Below, piece by piece: positions 2,052-17,996 of a DNA stretch of 21,023 bases. Source of the DNA: a virus. The notes under the pieces are model-generated. The model did no database searches, had not been told where the DNA came from, and worked only from the letters and a program-made list of their open reading frames with translations. The stretch lies in IMG/VR virus record IMGVR_UViG_3300027971_000262, positions 1 through 21,023 of that record. One strand, written 5' to 3'. How positions within the stretch are numbered: position 1 is the first letter of the stretch; each line of letters opens with the position of its first letter. The position numbers and the translations under genes were made by a program.

Positions 2052-2911
2052 GTCGTCTCCTTCGTGAGTGATTCCAAGACCTTCCGCTTCGTCGCCTCAA
2101 ACCGCTGGGCGTCGTCGCCCGTCCAGACCGCCGGCGGGGCCTTCTCCGGCTCCCTGCCGCCCCGCTTGGCCTTGGGGGCGTCGTACTGCCCGCCAAGGCA
2201 CAGATCCACGAACCGCGGGCCGACGAACTGCACAAGCGTCACCGGCGTCTCAAAGTACCGGCACTTGCCGAGCCGCTTTGTCGCCTCTTCCGCCTTGTCG
2301 CCCCAGCCGACTTCCGCCAGCCGATCCGACCAGCCGTCCGGGGGCGTGGTGGGCTTCCACTCGCGGCGATTACCGGCAGCCGCCCCGGCGTTCCAGGCAG
2401 CCCGGAACGCCTTCCACGTCTCTTCCGGGGATTCCGGCTTTCCTTGCGCAGCTTCTCGCGGAGGAGGAGGATCTTCTCCTGTATCTCCTCTATCTCCTCT
2501 CCCGCGCTTGAGCGCCGGATCTTCCGGCGCTTGAGCGCCGGGACTGCCGGCGCGTCGGCGTTTGTCCTCGTACGAGGTCGCCCGATCGGCCTGCTGGAGC
2601 CTCGACTTGGCCGCCTGGCTGAACCGGCGATCCCACCCTGGGATAGCAACGGTGGCGTCCGTCTCGTCGATCTCCAGCCACCCGACGGCGGCCACGTGAT
2701 GCCAAAAGGCTTGATCCTGGCCGCACGTCCGCACGAGCCGCGGAATGGTCATCCGTGCCCGGCCGTTGGCCGTGTTCAACGCCGCCCAGCCCCACAGCCG
2801 CAGGAGCGAGAAGACGATCTCCTCGACCGGCCGCCCGGTCGTGTCGATCAGCTCCTGCACCTCCGGCTTGTCTGGCAGACCGATGTCGTAGGCAATCCAT
2901 TCACCCGCCAC
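2048..2911 (-). CDS. Putative replication-initiation or DNA-binding protein (winged-helix-like N-terminus)
   Basis: The start is taken as GTG at 2911, which shares its G with the TAG stop of the upstream zinc-finger gene and has GGGGAGGA five bases before it. This gives 287 residues beginning VAGEWIAYDIGLPDKPEV. An upstream start would run through that gene. Residues 1-110, with TGRPVEEIVFSLLRLWGW, ARMTIPRLVR and VAAVGWLEI, resemble phage proteins with a DnaD/replication-protein-O-like winged helix that read DNA near the origin. A charged low-complexity linker follows (about 115-175). The C-terminal half has EETWKAFRAAWN and RYFETPVTLVQFV, the latter like the C-terminal part of DnaD-type phage replisome organisers. 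I assign a replication role tentatively. The immediate neighbours are small zinc-ribbon genes. Confidence 0.75.
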   Translation of the reverse strand: MAGEWIAYDIGLPDKPEVQELIDTTGRPVEEIVFSLLRLWGWAALNTANGRARMTIPRLVRTCGQDQAFWHHVAAVGWLEIDETDATVAIPGWDRRFSQAAKSRLQQADRATSYEDKRRRAGSPGAQAPEDPALKRGRGDRGDTGEDPPPPREAAQGKPESPEETWKAFRAAWNAGAAAGNRREWKPTTPPDGWSDRLAEVGWGDKAEEATKRLGKCRYFETPVTLVQFVGPRFVDLCLGGQYDAPKAKRGGREPEKAPPAVWTGDDAQRFEATKRKVLESLTKETT

Positions 2912-3168
2912 TATTCGTCCTCCCCGTAGTTCTCGCCGTGGTAGGACCGCTCCGCCCCGACGTTCCTGCACTCGTCGCAAAATCGCTTTTCGCCTCTGAA
3001 CTCTCGCCCGCACGATTCGCAAACGTCCGGGGCTGTCTTGTTGGAAATCGCGTCTGAATGGCTCGCCGGAAGCCCAAACGACTTGCGGCCCTCGCATCGT
3101 GAGCAAACGCCGCTCTTGCTCCGCGTGTCACGGCCGCAAAACAGGCAGCACACCAATTCACCCGCCAT
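2911..3168 (-). CDS. Double zinc-ribbon protein (85 aa)
   Basis: The protein begins MAGELVCCLFCGRDT and contains four CxxC knuckles: CLFC, CSRC, CESC and CDEC. That is enough for two zinc ribbons separated by about 25 residues. The stop TAG provides the first base of the next gene's GTG start, so expression is likely coupled to the replication-like gene. The start overlaps the end of the preceding gene by 11 bases. A nucleic-acid-binding or adaptor role is plausible from the fold alone. Confidence 0.8.
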   Translation of the reverse strand: MAGELVCCLFCGRDTRSKSGVCSRCEGRKSFGLPASHSDAISNKTAPDVCESCGREFRGEKRFCDECRNVGAERSYHGENYGEDE

Positions 3169-3403
3169 CCGCGTCCTCCTGTCCGTCCTCGTCCGCCGCC
3201 GCCGGCGTCGCGTCCCACAGTTCCTGAAGCTTCCGCCGCTCCTCCGCCAACGCCTTCCGCCTCGTCGCCAGCTCCTTCAGCAGCTCGAACGCCGCCACCG
3301 CCCCCAGCTCCTCGTTGCGGTCGAGGATCTGCTTCTTGATCGCGTCCAGCTCGTCGGCCTGGGCGATGGCGATGAGGGCGGCGTAGTCGGAGGGGAGGGT
3401 CAT
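3158..3403 (-). CDS. Hypothetical helical protein (81 aa)
   Basis: The start at 3403 (MTLPSDYAALIAIAQ) is chosen because the 71 residues further upstream in the frame are compositionally unlike coding sequence and overlap the DUF262 gene. The protein is almost wholly charged and helical, including ELATRRKALAEERRKLQEL, and ends in a very acidic tail (AADEDGQEDADGG). It is probably a coiled coil. The ribosome binding site is weak (AAAGG about eight bases upstream), making this start less certain than most here. Function unknown. Confidence 0.7.
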   Translation of the reverse strand: MTLPSDYAALIAIAQADELDAIKKQILDRNEELGAVAAFELLKELATRRKALAEERRKLQELWDATPAAADEDGQEDADGG

Positions 3404-3441: not shown

Positions 3442-4593
3442 TCACTCGCCAACTTGCCTTCTGCCCCTGGATCGGTTGAGAATCGCAGGCTCGGCGAACG
3501 TCTCCGTCCCTCCATCCGCGTGGGGAACGAGGTGGCTTTCGTCGTACCCAGCCTGGGCTACGATCCGCCGGGATCGCTTGAGCTGCTCGATCTTCGGTCC
3601 ACCAAAAGCCTCGCACTTAAAAAGCCACTTGAGCGAGACTTGATCGATGCGAAACAGCATCGGCGTGCCATCCACTTCGATCTCGTATCGCGCCGACCAC
3701 GTTTTCCTGTTTACGTTCGACGCCACGAACCAGCGGACCAACTCCACGAACGCATCAGACGGGCACCCGATGCTCTTGATGTGCAGGTAGGCCGAATACA
3801 TAGCGCGAACGGCCGTCATGTCCCAACGCTTGGCGTCGAAAGACTTCGTTTCTTCGGAAAGCAGGGCGTTCACACTCTCGATCGCTCTGATGAATCCGTC
3901 GCACTTTGATTGCCATTCATCTCGATTTCCATCGAGCCATCCTCGCACCCTCCGCTCGATCTGGTCGCTGATGCTTCGCTCAGACTTTGCGTAGAGCTGA
4001 AGGTCTTTGTGGCGGGTTGCGTACTTGTAGAACAGACCGAGGCTGTGCCTGTGCAACTGGCCGGCCTTCTTGCGGCCGTGCTCGCTTGAGCGACTGATAC
4101 CCGCCATGCCGACCGACAAATCGTCTACTGTCGTCCGGACCATCTGGTACAGCGATCGGCCGGCATCATCAGATTCCAAGTCGCCGCGGTACTTCTCGTA
4201 CGGAATCAGCCCAACCCCGTCGTTAAGGTGCTGAAAGTCCATCCGGGCATCGTCGTGGGTTTCGTACACCATTGACTGCTGGGACACCTGAGCGCCGCGC
4301 AGCGACTCAACCTGCTCCCTGCACAATCCGTACTCGGATGGACCATCGATTGCTCGCATGAGCGTTGTGATTCGTTGCCTTCCATCCTGAAGAAAACTTG
4401 TGTTCCCTCCCTTGAGACGGTAGGTCGTGATTACTCCGAGCACGTGACCGAGCGAAATCGTCCTAGCGAGGAAATGGTTGGCCTTTTTCTGCGTCCACAC
4501 GTACTCGCGCTGGTAGTCGGGATCAGTCAACTCCTTCGACCGATAGTCGTTGACGATGTCCCTGGCGTACCTCGTTGATGGTCCAAGATTCAT
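3442..4593 (-). CDS. DUF262 domain protein with C-terminal HNH-like nuclease motif
   Basis: The ATG at 4593 overlaps the methyltransferase stop as ATGA, giving 383 residues. Residues about 10-80 show the DUF262 (GmrS/ParB-like) pattern: DPDYQREYVW, the helix FLARTISLGHVLGVI, and the signature DGRQRITTL at 70-78, which in this superfamily is the nucleotide-handling motif. A helical middle follows. The C-terminus has ESHLVPHADGGTE (H354) and EPAILNRSRGRR (N373, R), the layout of an HNH/His-Me nuclease. DUF262 plus HNH/DUF1524 is the architecture of GmrSD and SspE restriction enzymes, which cut modified DNA using nucleotides. Here the partner is an adjacent DNA methyltransferase. I infer a restriction or superinfection-exclusion role. 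GC is visibly lower than in neighbours. The domain calls are by eye. Confidence 0.8.
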   Translation of the reverse strand: MNLGPSTRYARDIVNDYRSKELTDPDYQREYVWTQKKANHFLARTISLGHVLGVITTYRLKGGNTSFLQDGRQRITTLMRAIDGPSEYGLCREQVESLRGAQVSQQSMVYETHDDARMDFQHLNDGVGLIPYEKYRGDLESDDAGRSLYQMVRTTVDDLSVGMAGISRSSEHGRKKAGQLHRHSLGLFYKYATRHKDLQLYAKSERSISDQIERRVRGWLDGNRDEWQSKCDGFIRAIESVNALLSEETKSFDAKRWDMTAVRAMYSAYLHIKSIGCPSDAFVELVRWFVASNVNRKTWSARYEIEVDGTPMLFRIDQVSLKWLFKCEAFGGPKIEQLKRSRRIVAQAGYDESHLVPHADGGTETFAEPAILNRSRGRRQVGE

Positions 4594-6029
4594 TGGTTCA
4601 CCTTCGTTCCACTGAGCCTCACGTGTGCCACATCCGAAAACGTCTCGCTCTTCTCGACACCGACGTACTTCCGGCCGTTTCGCACTGATGCAACGCCGGT
4701 GGTTCCGCTTCCGTTGAACGGATCGACGACGAGATCGCCGGGCATGGAAGCACAAAGGACGATCGGCTCGACCAGGGCCAGGGGCAGTTGCGTGGGGAAG
4801 TCTGGGATACGCTCCGCGCAAGTCCCGGTCAGCCTCGGGATCTGCCACACGTCGTCCCAGAGCTTCCCGCCGGCTGAGGCGCGACTGTCGCCGTACTTCG
4901 TCTGGCGATCGCTCGGGCGAGTCACCGGCTCCGGGTTGAAGACGAAAGACTTCTCGTCCTTGACGGCATAGAAGATGTGGCGGCTTGTTCGGTTGAACTT
5001 GTTCTGGCAGTTCACGCCGAAAGTCTCGTACCACTTGATCCACGACCGGAGAGTCAGGCCCCGACGCTTGAGGATCATGGCGTATTCGGCAGCGTACTCG
5101 TCGCCAATCATCACCCACAGCGAACCATCTTCGGTAAGACAATCGCAGCACAGCCCGATCCATTCATCCACCCACCGCAGGTAAGCGCCGTCCGAGAGGC
5201 TGTCGGCATCCTTTCCTGGGCCATAGTCGATGCCGATGTTGTAGGGTGGGTCGGTGAAGATTAGCCGCGCCGGCCCGTGCTCGTCTCGCACGGAAGCTAG
5301 ACCGTCGAGGACATCGACGTTGAGAATCGACCACTCAGGACGGCCGGTTTCATGCTCGACGGCCTTCGCGGCCGCCTCCTCGAGCTCCAGGCGGCGCTTA
5401 CGGCTGCGAATCTCCCGCAGCGCTGCTGCGGGCTTCATTTCAAGTGCCGCGACTTTCTTGGCGAGATCGCTGTGGCTGCATATCTGCTCAGCACGGCCCA
5501 TAGTGCCGGTCGATGCACTGGCTTCGGCAGCGCGCGCCTCGCGTGCGACGTGCTTGCCGCTGTTGTTTAGACGCGGCTCATTGTGATCCGCGTCTAAAGC
5601 CTTTTGCTTGACAGAGGCGCGCCCAACTTTTCCGTCTGAAGCTGCTTGAGATTTTTTCCGATTCGCCTCCTTCTTGATCTCTCCGTGCTTCTTCTCCCAC
5701 TTCTCCGATTCCTTCTGATACCGAATAAAGATCACGCACTTGACCGTCTCGTCCAAGTCGCGCCGCGGGCCGTTCATCGTCCAGGCGTAGTCCCACGGAT
5801 TGCCTCGATACTCTCGAGTGATCGGCTTGAGACCTAGCTCGATGCAGGCGCGGTAGCGATTGCGACCGTCGAGAATCATGCCATCACAAATCGTGATTGG
5901 CTCTTCCTGCCCCTTCTTCTTGATGTCGTCTCGCAGTTGCGCAAACGCCTTGTCTTTCATCATGGGCCAGCCGTCTGCGGCCGGGTGACCCTTAAGCTCC
6001 ACCATCGTTGCTGGCATGCTTCCCTCCAT
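4590..6029 (-). CDS. ParB-like domain fused to beta-class DNA methyltransferase
   Basis: The start at 6029 follows the upstream stop by two bases and has GGGGGAGGG seven bases before it; an internal ATG at 6017 with GGAGGG is an alternative. The 479-residue protein has an N-terminal ParB-like nuclease/CTPase-fold domain (about 8-75: LRDDIKKKGQEEPITICDG, then LDGRNRYRACIELG). A basic helical linker with lysine-rich segments follows (about 95-230). The C-terminal SAM-dependent methyltransferase has catalytic DPPYNIG at about 260 and the SAM-binding DPFNGSGTTG at about 436. Motif IV before motif I defines the beta class, so the product is N6-methyladenine or N4-methylcytosine in DNA. ParB-methyltransferase fusions are known in phages. 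Here it overlaps the DUF262-HNH gene, suggesting it either protects against or works with that nuclease. Confidence 0.92.
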   Translation of the reverse strand: MEGSMPATMVELKGHPAADGWPMMKDKAFAQLRDDIKKKGQEEPITICDGMILDGRNRYRACIELGLKPITREYRGNPWDYAWTMNGPRRDLDETVKCVIFIRYQKESEKWEKKHGEIKKEANRKKSQAASDGKVGRASVKQKALDADHNEPRLNNSGKHVAREARAAEASASTGTMGRAEQICSHSDLAKKVAALEMKPAAALREIRSRKRRLELEEAAAKAVEHETGRPEWSILNVDVLDGLASVRDEHGPARLIFTDPPYNIGIDYGPGKDADSLSDGAYLRWVDEWIGLCCDCLTEDGSLWVMIGDEYAAEYAMILKRRGLTLRSWIKWYETFGVNCQNKFNRTSRHIFYAVKDEKSFVFNPEPVTRPSDRQTKYGDSRASAGGKLWDDVWQIPRLTGTCAERIPDFPTQLPLALVEPIVLCASMPGDLVVDPFNGSGTTGVASVRNGRKYVGVEKSETFSDVAHVRLSGTKVNQ

Positions 6030-6031
6030 AG

Positions 6032-6361
6032 TCACACCCTCCCCCCACACACCACCCGCCACTCCGTCTCGCCCCGCCTGGCGGCCGACTTGACCTCCAG
6101 CCCCGTCCGCTCGACCTTGCCGAGCCGCTCGAGCCGCTTCATGCGGCGGATCACCTGCTGATCGCTCATGGTGCCGATCCGAGCCGCCAGCTCGGTCTTG
6201 CCGGCCGGCCCGGCGGCCAGCGCCGCGAGGATAAGCCGTTCGTGTTCGTCAACCGCGGCGGCCGTCATCGCCTGCCCGGCCGCCACCGATGTCGGCGGAT
6301 CGGTGCGGCGGGCCGGGGCCGCGTCAAAGTCGAGGAAGTGCTGGCCCTGGAAGGTCGTCAT
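6032..6361 (-). CDS. Winged-helix DNA-binding protein (109 aa)
   Basis: The ATG at 6361 overlaps the preceding stop as ATGA and yields MTTFQGQHFLDFDAAPARRT. The N-terminal part contains DPPTSVAAGQA, a motif common in phage proteins that carry a MarR-like winged helix. Residues about 50-100 give the domain: HERLILAALAAG, KTELAARIG, SDQQVIRRMKRLERLGKVE, with a wing around TGLEVKSAARRGETEWRVV. It likely binds DNA and could regulate the methyltransferase/nuclease pair that begins two bases downstream of its stop. That regulatory link is inference from adjacency. Confidence 0.8.
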   Translation of the reverse strand: MTTFQGQHFLDFDAAPARRTDPPTSVAAGQAMTAAAVDEHERLILAALAAGPAGKTELAARIGTMSDQQVIRRMKRLERLGKVERTGLEVKSAARRGETEWRVVCGGRV

Positions 6362-6744
6362 GTGCTCACCAGCCCTTCCGCCTCGAGCAGCTGCCGGCAC
6401 CGGAAGATCAGCGCCTCGCGAGCCCCGTCGCGGTCCTCGGCGTCTTCGGCCTGGCGGTAGCGGTCGCAGGCAGCGGCCAGGAGGATGATGTACTGGTCGC
6501 GCCGGGTGGCGTACGTCTCGTCGCAGAAGTCTCCGCGGCTGTTCGTCTTCGCGTCACGCAGGATGCTCTTGCCGAGACTCTTGTCAGTCCGGTGCGAGTC
6601 GCGCCGCTCCTTCAGGCACCAGCGGCACACATCCATCCTTCCGCCGAGGAGTCCGGTGCGAGCGGCAAACGCCCCAGGCGGCTTCGTCTCGCGGCACTCC
6701 GTGCACGCCTTCGGCTGTTCGCCGATCGTTGTGATTCCCCCCAT
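6358..6744 (-). CDS. Zinc-ribbon protein resembling HNH-nuclease-associated ribbons (128 aa)
   Basis: The start has GGAGGA four bases upstream. Residues 14-46 hold CTECRETKPPGAFA and CRWCLKERR, two CxxC knuckles in the spacing of the ribbon that precedes many phage HNH endonucleases (CxxCxxxKPLxxF then CKxC). The rest is helical and charged, with a segment QYIILLAAACDRYRQAED, and no HNH His-Asn-His triad is visible. I treat it as a DNA- or protein-binding zinc protein and not a nuclease. It opens the four-gene group ending in the DUF262 gene. Confidence 0.8.
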   Translation of the reverse strand: MGGITTIGEQPKACTECRETKPPGAFAARTGLLGGRMDVCRWCLKERRDSHRTDKSLGKSILRDAKTNSRGDFCDETYATRRDQYIILLAAACDRYRQAEDAEDRDGAREALIFRCRQLLEAEGLVST

Positions 6745-12981: not shown

Positions 12982-13887
12982 TTGAAACTTACGGAAGCAC
13001 TGAGCCGGTACGTGGTGATCCAAGACCTGTCGGCACGGTCGGAAGTTCTCTACCGGCACTCGATCGCAAAGTTTGCCGAGCACCTCGGCCACGAGCCGAC
13101 GGCCGACGATCTCACCAGCATGCGTGTTGCCGAGTTCCTTCGGTGGCGGGCCACCAACACCCGAGCCGGCAAGCCGATCTCGCCCGACAGCGTAAGCAAG
13201 GATCGGTCGCAGATCCTTGCCCTCTGGCGTTGGATGCGTGAAGAGGATTTGACCGTCGGCAAGATGCCGAGACTGAAGCGTCGGCCGAAGATCGCACGGA
13301 CGCCGCGGGCGTACACGTCGAACGACATCGCCCGGCTGATCGTGCAAGCTCGCAAGCGCCGCGGCCGCACCGGCGGCCTGCCGTCGGCCTGGTGGTGGTC
13401 GTCGATCTTGTACGCGCAGTGGTGCTGCGGTGCCCGCATCGGCGAGTTGATGCAGCTCCGGTGGCGGAACGTCGATCTCGTCGCCGGTCGCGTGCTCTTC
13501 GAGGCTGACACGCGGAAGGGCAGGCGGGCCGACATCTCCCACGCCTTGCCGGCCGATCTATGCCGGCAGCTCGAGGAGCAACGCGGCGGCCCCGACGATC
13601 TCGTCTGGCCGTGGGACCGTAATCCCACCAGCATCTACCCGTCGTTACGAGTCCTCTGCCGGACTGCCGGCGTCGCCTACCTTCCGTTCCATGCGGTCCG
13701 GAAGTCCTCGGCGTCGTACGTTCACGCTGGGGGCGGGGACGCCACGGCCCACCTGGGGCACCACAGCACCGAGATGACGCGGACGCACTACCTCGCCCCG
13801 GCGATCACCCAGACCCGCTCGGCCCTCGACTACCTCCCCACCCTCGATCTCGGCGAGGAGGCCGAGTTCGTGCCGGACGCGGAATAG
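12982..13887 (+). CDS. int: Tyrosine recombinase / phage integrase
   Basis: The 301-residue protein begins at a TTG (GGAG about ten bases upstream) as MKLTEALSRYVVIQ. An N-terminal SAM-like core-binding domain covers about 1-95 (SARSEVLYRHSIAKFAEHLG, RSQILALWRWMREE). The catalytic domain carries the full set: R152 in CGARIGELMQL, K179 in DTRKGR, H237xxR240 in FHAVRKSSAS, H260 in LGHHS, and nucleophile Y270 in TRTHYLAP. It should integrate the phage and, with the excisionase, excise it. The divergent arrangement with the HTH gene is typical. An attachment site is expected nearby, but no core sequence can be identified without the host junction. A TTG start suggests low expression. Confidence 0.95.
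   Translation: MKLTEALSRYVVIQDLSARSEVLYRHSIAKFAEHLGHEPTADDLTSMRVAEFLRWRATNTRAGKPISPDSVSKDRSQILALWRWMREEDLTVGKMPRLKRRPKIARTPRAYTSNDIARLIVQARKRRGRTGGLPSAWWWSSILYAQWCCGARIGELMQLRWRNVDLVAGRVLFEADTRKGRRADISHALPADLCRQLEEQRGGPDDLVWPWDRNPTSIYPSLRVLCRTAGVAYLPFHAVRKSSASYVHAGGGDATAHLGHHSTEMTRTHYLAPAITQTRSALDYLPTLDLGEEAEFVPDAE

Positions 13888-15422: not shown

Positions 15423-17996
<2,574 letters not shown>

What the first reader, a model, noticed from the sequence alone, without database searches (positions are those of the whole stretch)
3442..6029. Candidate two-gene system: ParB-methyltransferase fusion coupled to a DUF262-HNH nuclease
A ParB-like domain fused to a beta-class methyltransferase (DPPYNIG, DPFNGSGTTG) ends in an ATGA overlap with a DUF262 protein (DGRQRITTL) that has a C-terminal HNH-like HLVPHADGG...N...R motif. 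DUF262 nucleases (GmrSD, SspE) cut modified DNA, so placing one in tight translational coupling with a DNA methyltransferase in a phage could be a modification-linked restriction or superinfection-exclusion system. The pair is also lower in GC and sits downstream of a winged-helix and a zinc-ribbon gene, so it may be a four-gene cassette (3442-6744). This combination is not one I know as a named system.
Basis: partly seen in the sequence, partly recalled or inferred. Interest (0 to 1): 0.78.

Follow-up and report, generated by a model that had tools for sequence, protein, structure and literature searches.

The report
Phage methylase with swappable nuclease partner
A phage, probably of planctomycete bacteria, carries a DNA-methylating enzyme read together with a predicted DNA-cutting enzyme; in related phages the same methylase is paired with an unrelated small cutter, which suggests a mark-your-own, cut-the-rest system built into phages whose cutting part can be exchanged.

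Summary
On the minus strand a ParB-N6 adenine methyltransferase (MTase; 4590-6029, start probably 6017) overlaps by ATGA a 383-aa GmrSD_N/DUF262 protein (3442-4593). The HNH-like C-terminus is real as a conserved motif but weak and incomplete: the central Asn and zinc Cys are missing and no model places it confidently.

Comparison explains the pair. In 27 non-redundant relatives (26 viral, one bacterial-MAG contig) the same MTase is followed, 20 times with the identical 4-bp overlap, by a different ~147-aa HNH endonuclease (AlphaFold pLDDT 91). Searching 2.9 million viral contigs with that HNH protein alone returned 28 loci, all beside this MTase. The DUF262 protein occupies exactly this slot, between MTase and replication-initiation gene, in only three phages. 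They form one MTase clade (98/96) nested among HNH-bearing phages, so the simplest history is one nuclease exchange.

The likeliest function is a phage restriction-modification-like module: the MTase marks phage DNA and an interchangeable nuclease cuts unmarked DNA. How DUF262 reads the mark is unknown; SspE/DndI (modification-sensing, cut unmodified DNA) is a better model than GmrSD. Nothing has been tested at the bench.

The parts
3442..4593 (-). DUF262-HNH-like nuclease candidate, 383 aa
   Evidence: Pfam GmrSD_N E 1.5e-13; homologues 98% and 67% identical in L002, L003; dN/dS about 0.04 against L002
4228..4560 (-). DUF262 (GmrSD_N, ParB/Srx-like) domain, aa 12-122
   Evidence: Pfam match
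4372..4386 (-). DGRQR motif, predicted NTP-binding loop
   Evidence: sequence; equals DGQQR of GmrS/SspE/DndI (PMC4619093, PMC9646914, PMC11662687)
3457..3546 (-). HNH-like tail, aa 350-379 (H354 .. GG .. N373-R-x-R-G)
   Evidence: conserved in L003; aligns with the HNH motif of the alternative partner (hhalign P 0.008; shuffle test); incomplete motif
4590..4593 (-). ATGA stop/start overlap coupling MTase to DUF262 gene
   Evidence: same 4-bp overlap in L003, L002, and 20 MTase-small-HNH pairs
4590..6029 (-). ParB-like domain fused to beta-class N6 adenine methyltransferase, 479 aa (475 aa from the likely start at 6017)
   Evidence: Pfam PF01555 E 1.7e-46; nearest solved chains 8urk, CcrM 6pbd, RsrI
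5856..5870 (-). DGRNR motif of the ParB-like domain
   Evidence: sequence; ParB PHROGs, ParB/Noc chains
5241..5252 (-). DPPY catalytic motif
   Evidence: sequence; invariant in alignment A3
4704..4724 (-). DPFNGSG SAM-binding motif
   Evidence: sequence; largely invariant in A3
6032..6361 (-). winged-helix protein, 109 aa, upstream in the same gene run
   Evidence: phrog_1123 E 1e-8; upstream of the MTase in several HNH-bearing relatives
6358..6744 (-). zinc-ribbon protein, 128 aa, first gene of the run; overlaps the winged-helix start by ATGA
   Evidence: weak endonuclease VII / Lar-like PHROG matches; conserved only in L002/L005
2048..2911 (-). replication-initiation-like protein that closes the conserved gene order
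   Evidence: phrog_2509 E 1.6e-18; follows the nuclease slot in most near relatives

Best explanation
A phage-encoded restriction-modification-like module with an exchangeable nuclease. The ParB-MTase methylates adenine in phage DNA at an unknown site; the translationally coupled partner is a nuclease that spares marked DNA and cuts or nicks unmarked DNA (host chromosome or a competing phage). In the common form the nuclease is a ~147-aa HNH enzyme; in the window's lineage the slot is taken by a DUF262-HNH-like protein, which probably uses its NTP-binding DUF262 domain to sense the mark and gate the C-terminal nuclease, as SspE and DndI do with phosphorothioate. Shown: the genes, the coupling, the slot exchange, the strict linkage of small HNH to this MTase, the predicted HNH fold of the small partner, purifying selection. 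Inferred: methylation and its specificity, nuclease activity, self/non-self logic, biological target.
For: MTase followed by small HNH in 27 non-redundant relatives, 20 with exact 4-bp overlap; DUF262 in the same place in the window and two others. The small HNH searched alone was found in 28 loci, every one on a contig already known for this MTase: nuclease not seen without the MTase, MTase sometimes without nuclease, as restriction-modification predicts. Same flanks (winged helix - MTase - nuclease - replication gene) with only the nuclease exchanged. DUF262 carriers form one MTase clade, 98/96, within an HNH-bearing group. Small HNH model pLDDT 90.7 with beta-beta-alpha core; top fold matches are almost all HNH nucleases (Cas9 HNH, Gme HNH 4h9d, a type II restriction enzyme 4l0k), though none with E <= 0.001. 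A protein that looks like PD-(D/E)XK by eye fills the slot in L034/L049. dN/dS 0.03-0.04 for DUF262 and MTase core. SspE and DndI precedents: PMC9646914, PMC11662687.
Against: No activity or methylation data. The HNH-like tail of the DUF262 protein lacks the middle Asn and zinc ligands and is barely above chance by profile, so it could be inactive. The AlphaFold model of the DUF262 protein failed (pLDDT 42, three sequences). The DUF262-MTase pair is known from only three related phages, so its conservation could be vertical inheritance of neighbours. Recognition site unknown, so protection cannot be checked. 12 non-redundant MTases of the wider family have no recognised partner.
Confidence: 0.6

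Rival explanations
1. Type IV-like system: the DUF262-HNH protein cuts modified DNA (as GmrSD or BrxU do), and the MTase has a separate role such as anti-restriction of the phage's own genome.
For: DUF262 is the GmrSD_N family; GmrSD and BrxU cut modified cytosines (PMC4619093, PMC10952713).
Against: It sits in translational overlap with an enzyme that modifies DNA in the same cell; the exchanged partner in relatives is an ordinary HNH enzyme without a DUF262 reader; no DUF1524 match.
Confidence: 0.12
2. The nuclease serves replication or recombination (nicking, resolution, homing) of the phage and the MTase is a neighbour by chance in the early operon.
For: The slot lies between a Sak4-like annealing gene and a replication-initiation gene; HNH genes in phages are often homing or resolvase-type (general knowledge).
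Against: The small HNH was not found without this MTase in 2.9 million viral contigs, including phages with otherwise different surroundings (L022, L024, L026, L028, L030); the slot accepts unrelated nucleases.
Confidence: 0.15
3. The DUF262 protein is not a nuclease: an NTP-binding reader or regulator of the MTase, with a vestigial HNH-like tail.
For: Incomplete HNH motif; short DUF262-only proteins exist in T4-like phages.
Against: The tail is conserved at 67% protein identity and the protein occupies the slot of a clear HNH enzyme.
Confidence: 0.13

Closest known systems
SspABCD-SspE and IscS-DndBCDE-DndI (phosphorothioate-sensing defence)
   Same: A modification enzyme set encoded with a DUF262-HNH nuclease whose DUF262 domain has the DGQQR-type motif and the P-x-Y-Q patch; the nuclease spares marked self DNA (PMC9646914, PMC11662687).
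   Different: The mark here is predicted m6A by a single ParB-MTase, not phosphorothioate; the nuclease is only 383 aa; the tail is not a recognisable DUF1524; it sits in a phage, not a host defence island.
GmrSD / BrxU (Type IV restriction)
   Same: N-terminal GmrSD_N/DUF262 domain.
   Different: No DUF1524 match; coupled to a methyltransferase; no evidence of modified-cytosine targeting.
Type II restriction-modification with HNH endonuclease
   Same: Beta-class adenine MTase and a separate nuclease gene in strict linkage.
   Different: ParB-like domain fused to the MTase; phage-borne; recognition site and cutting not shown; the two small HNH partners tested match no PADLOC model.
Orphan phage ParB-MTases / CcrM- and YhdJ-like adenine methylases
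   Same: Catalytic domain nearest to 8urk, CcrM, RsrI; NCBIfam PRK11524.
   Different: Here followed by a nuclease gene in nearly all members of the near clade.

Membership tests
GmrSD family (Type IV restriction) | DUF262/GmrSD_N domain with DGQQR-type motif | tested here: met
   PF03235 E 1.5e-13, DGRQR aa 70-74
GmrSD family (Type IV restriction) | DUF1524 (GmrD) nuclease domain | tested here: not met
   no Pfam match beyond the DUF262 domain in the window protein or the L003 homologue; only HNH_5 E 0.09 on the L003 tail
GmrSD family (Type IV restriction) | cleaves glucosylated or otherwise modified cytosine DNA | not testable with these tools
   needs biochemistry
SspE/DndI | DUF262 NTPase plus C-terminal HNH nuclease in one chain | tested here: inconclusive
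   DUF262 met; HNH tail motif conserved but incomplete and weak
SspE/DndI | encoded with phosphorothioation genes (sspABCD or dndBCDE) | tested here: inconclusive
   none was named among the window proteins scanned, but no dedicated search was made and the window is a fragment
Type II restriction-modification system | DNA methyltransferase gene | tested here: met
   PF01555 E 1.7e-46 with intact DPPY and DPFNGSG
Type II restriction-modification system | endonuclease gene linked to the MTase and not found without it | tested here: met
   small HNH: 28 of 28 loci on contigs with this MTase; DUF262: 2 of 2 other close relatives; gene linkage only, not activity
Type II restriction-modification system | nuclease and MTase share a recognition site, methylation protects | not testable with these tools
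   needs methylome and cleavage assays
HNH endonucleases (the alternative partner, not the window protein) | beta-beta-alpha metal fold with H-N-H residues | tested here: met
   invariant N114, H122, N123 and near-invariant H100; AF2 pLDDT 90.7; top fold matches HNH, none with E <= 0.001

The most novel reading that the evidence does not exclude
The pair is the base-methylation counterpart of SspE/DndI: a DUF262 NTPase domain that reads N6-methyladenine laid down by its translationally coupled ParB-MTase and thereby gates a C-terminal HNH-like nuclease, carried by a phage and assembled by swapping a nuclease into an existing MTase-HNH operon.
Probability: 0.3. Interest if true: 0.72.

Novelty: new variant of a known kind. 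Interest (0 to 1): 0.55.

Why it matters
If true, it shows a restriction-like module living inside phages in which the methylase is fixed and the nuclease is interchangeable between unrelated folds, and it offers a compact two-gene case for asking whether DUF262 domains read base methylation. The natural swap within the same gene order is a built-in comparison: same MTase clade, same flanks, HNH or DUF262-HNH.

Tried and rejected
AlphaFold of the DUF262 protein: pLDDT 42 with three sequences, not used. Close DUF262 relatives elsewhere: none in plasmids, none confirmed in 85,000 bacterial and archaeal genomes by the pattern scan, eight weak N-terminal matches in 392 genomes of the phylum of a planctomycete MAG, short DUF262 genes in T4-like phages without any annotated DNA methyltransferase nearby. 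The C-terminal search returned only the two known records. Solved-structure sequence searches found no DUF262 relative. The macrolide phosphotransferase matches are chance. Considered and set aside: a free-standing four-gene cassette (zinc-ribbon gene not conserved). Wrong coordinates or handles were corrected and repeated.

Full report
What is there. The window is a 21,023-base virus record. It carries an integrase-like ORF at 12982-13887, which suggests a temperate phage. On the minus strand a run of genes reads zinc ribbon (6358-6744), winged helix (6032-6361), ParB-MTase (4590-6029, likely start 6017), DUF262 protein (3442-4593), a small gene (3158-3403), a zinc-ribbon gene (2911-3168) and a replication-initiation-like gene (2048-2911). 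Zinc ribbon/winged helix and MTase/DUF262 each overlap by ATGA.

The HNH-like tail. The 67%-identical homologue in L003 keeps SH-(I/L)-(I/V)-PHADGGTET-x-x-EPAI-x-NR-x-RGRR. Profile evidence is weak: hhalign against the alternative partner aligns this stretch with P 0.008; L003 scores above all of 2000 shuffles and the window above all but about five. SspE shows that a terminal Asn can replace the last His (PMC9646914), but the middle Asn is missing here. I treat it as a probable, divergent HNH domain.

What the slot holds elsewhere. The MTase is far commoner than this DUF262 protein. Thirty-eight viral loci encode close MTase relatives. Right after the MTase most encode a different protein of about 147 aa with a canonical HNH motif. 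After adding more distant viral loci and bacterial-MAG loci and removing duplicates, 27 MTases (26 viral, one MAG contig) have the small HNH, 20 with exactly the same 4-bp overlap; two, plus the window, have DUF262; 12 have no recognised partner. The small HNH matches Pfam HNH_5 and HNH weakly, models at pLDDT 90.7 with beta-beta-alpha topology, and its top structural matches are almost all HNH nucleases, although no match reaches E 0.001.

Linkage and direction. Searching 2.9 million viral contigs with the small HNH alone returned 28 loci. By contig name all 28 are MTase contigs. The scan uses short conserved peptides, so very diverged members could be missed. The reverse does not hold: some MTases have no nuclease. 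That asymmetry is what a restriction-modification pair predicts.

One exchange. In phages with the same flanks (winged helix, MTase, nuclease, replication gene) only the nuclease differs. On a tree of the MTase catalytic core the window, L005 and L010 form a clade (98/96) inside a 17-row group otherwise all HNH-bearing (97/89). The simplest reading is that a DUF262-HNH gene replaced a small HNH gene once. The pair has since diverged to 67% protein identity under purifying selection; against the near relative dN/dS is about 0.04 for the DUF262 protein and 0.03 for the MTase core. In L034 and L049, another branch, the slot holds a zinc-ribbon protein with conserved E89, D115 and E128-x-K130, which looks like a PD-(D/E)XK nuclease by eye only.

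Mechanism. The best-supported reading is a phage restriction-modification-like module with an exchangeable nuclease. For the DUF262 form the closest working precedents are SspE and DndI, DUF262-HNH proteins that sense a DNA modification through NTP hydrolysis and spare marked DNA (PMC9646914, PMC11662687). GmrSD and BrxU, which cut modified DNA (PMC10952713), are a poorer fit beside a methylase with intact motifs. The target may be the host chromosome or competing phages; gene position near replication genes points to expression during lytic growth, but this is inference.

Hosts and novelty. The nearest MTases in bacterial genomes are mostly in Planctomycetota assemblies, so planctomycete hosts are likely but unproven. 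Full-text searches turned up no description of a DUF262 protein coupled to a ParB-MTase among the titles, abstracts and passages I read; the library holds open-licence papers only. I file it as a new variant of a known kind: restriction-modification pairs and DUF262-HNH nucleases are both known, this coupling and swap are not known to me.

Noticed in passing
window 16562-17656 (-): A second N6_N4 methyltransferase (PF01555 E 4e-24), whose stop overlaps by ATGA the start of a 380-aa ORF (15423-16565) that looks like a papain-type peptidase by eye.
   Followed up: partly
window 12982-13887 (+): Integrase-like ORF (phrog_1 E 1.4e-29).
   Followed up: no
window 6358-6744 (-): Zinc-ribbon protein with weak matches to endonuclease VII-type (E 3e-5) and Lar-like restriction alleviation (E 7e-5) PHROGs.
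   Followed up: no
L034:6825-7505, L049:6437-7126: Third kind of protein after the same MTase: zinc ribbon plus E..D..ExK pattern suggestive of a PD-(D/E)XK nuclease, 60% identical to each other, no HMM match to a nuclease family.
   Followed up: partly
L045:6519-10440: Planctomycete MAG copy of the MTase beside an ABC-three-component CTD7 protein and a DUF3732 protein.
   Followed up: no
L038, L036 N-termini (alignment A3): The MTase catalytic core is kept while the N-terminal region differs (ParB-like in most, another region in these).
   Followed up: no
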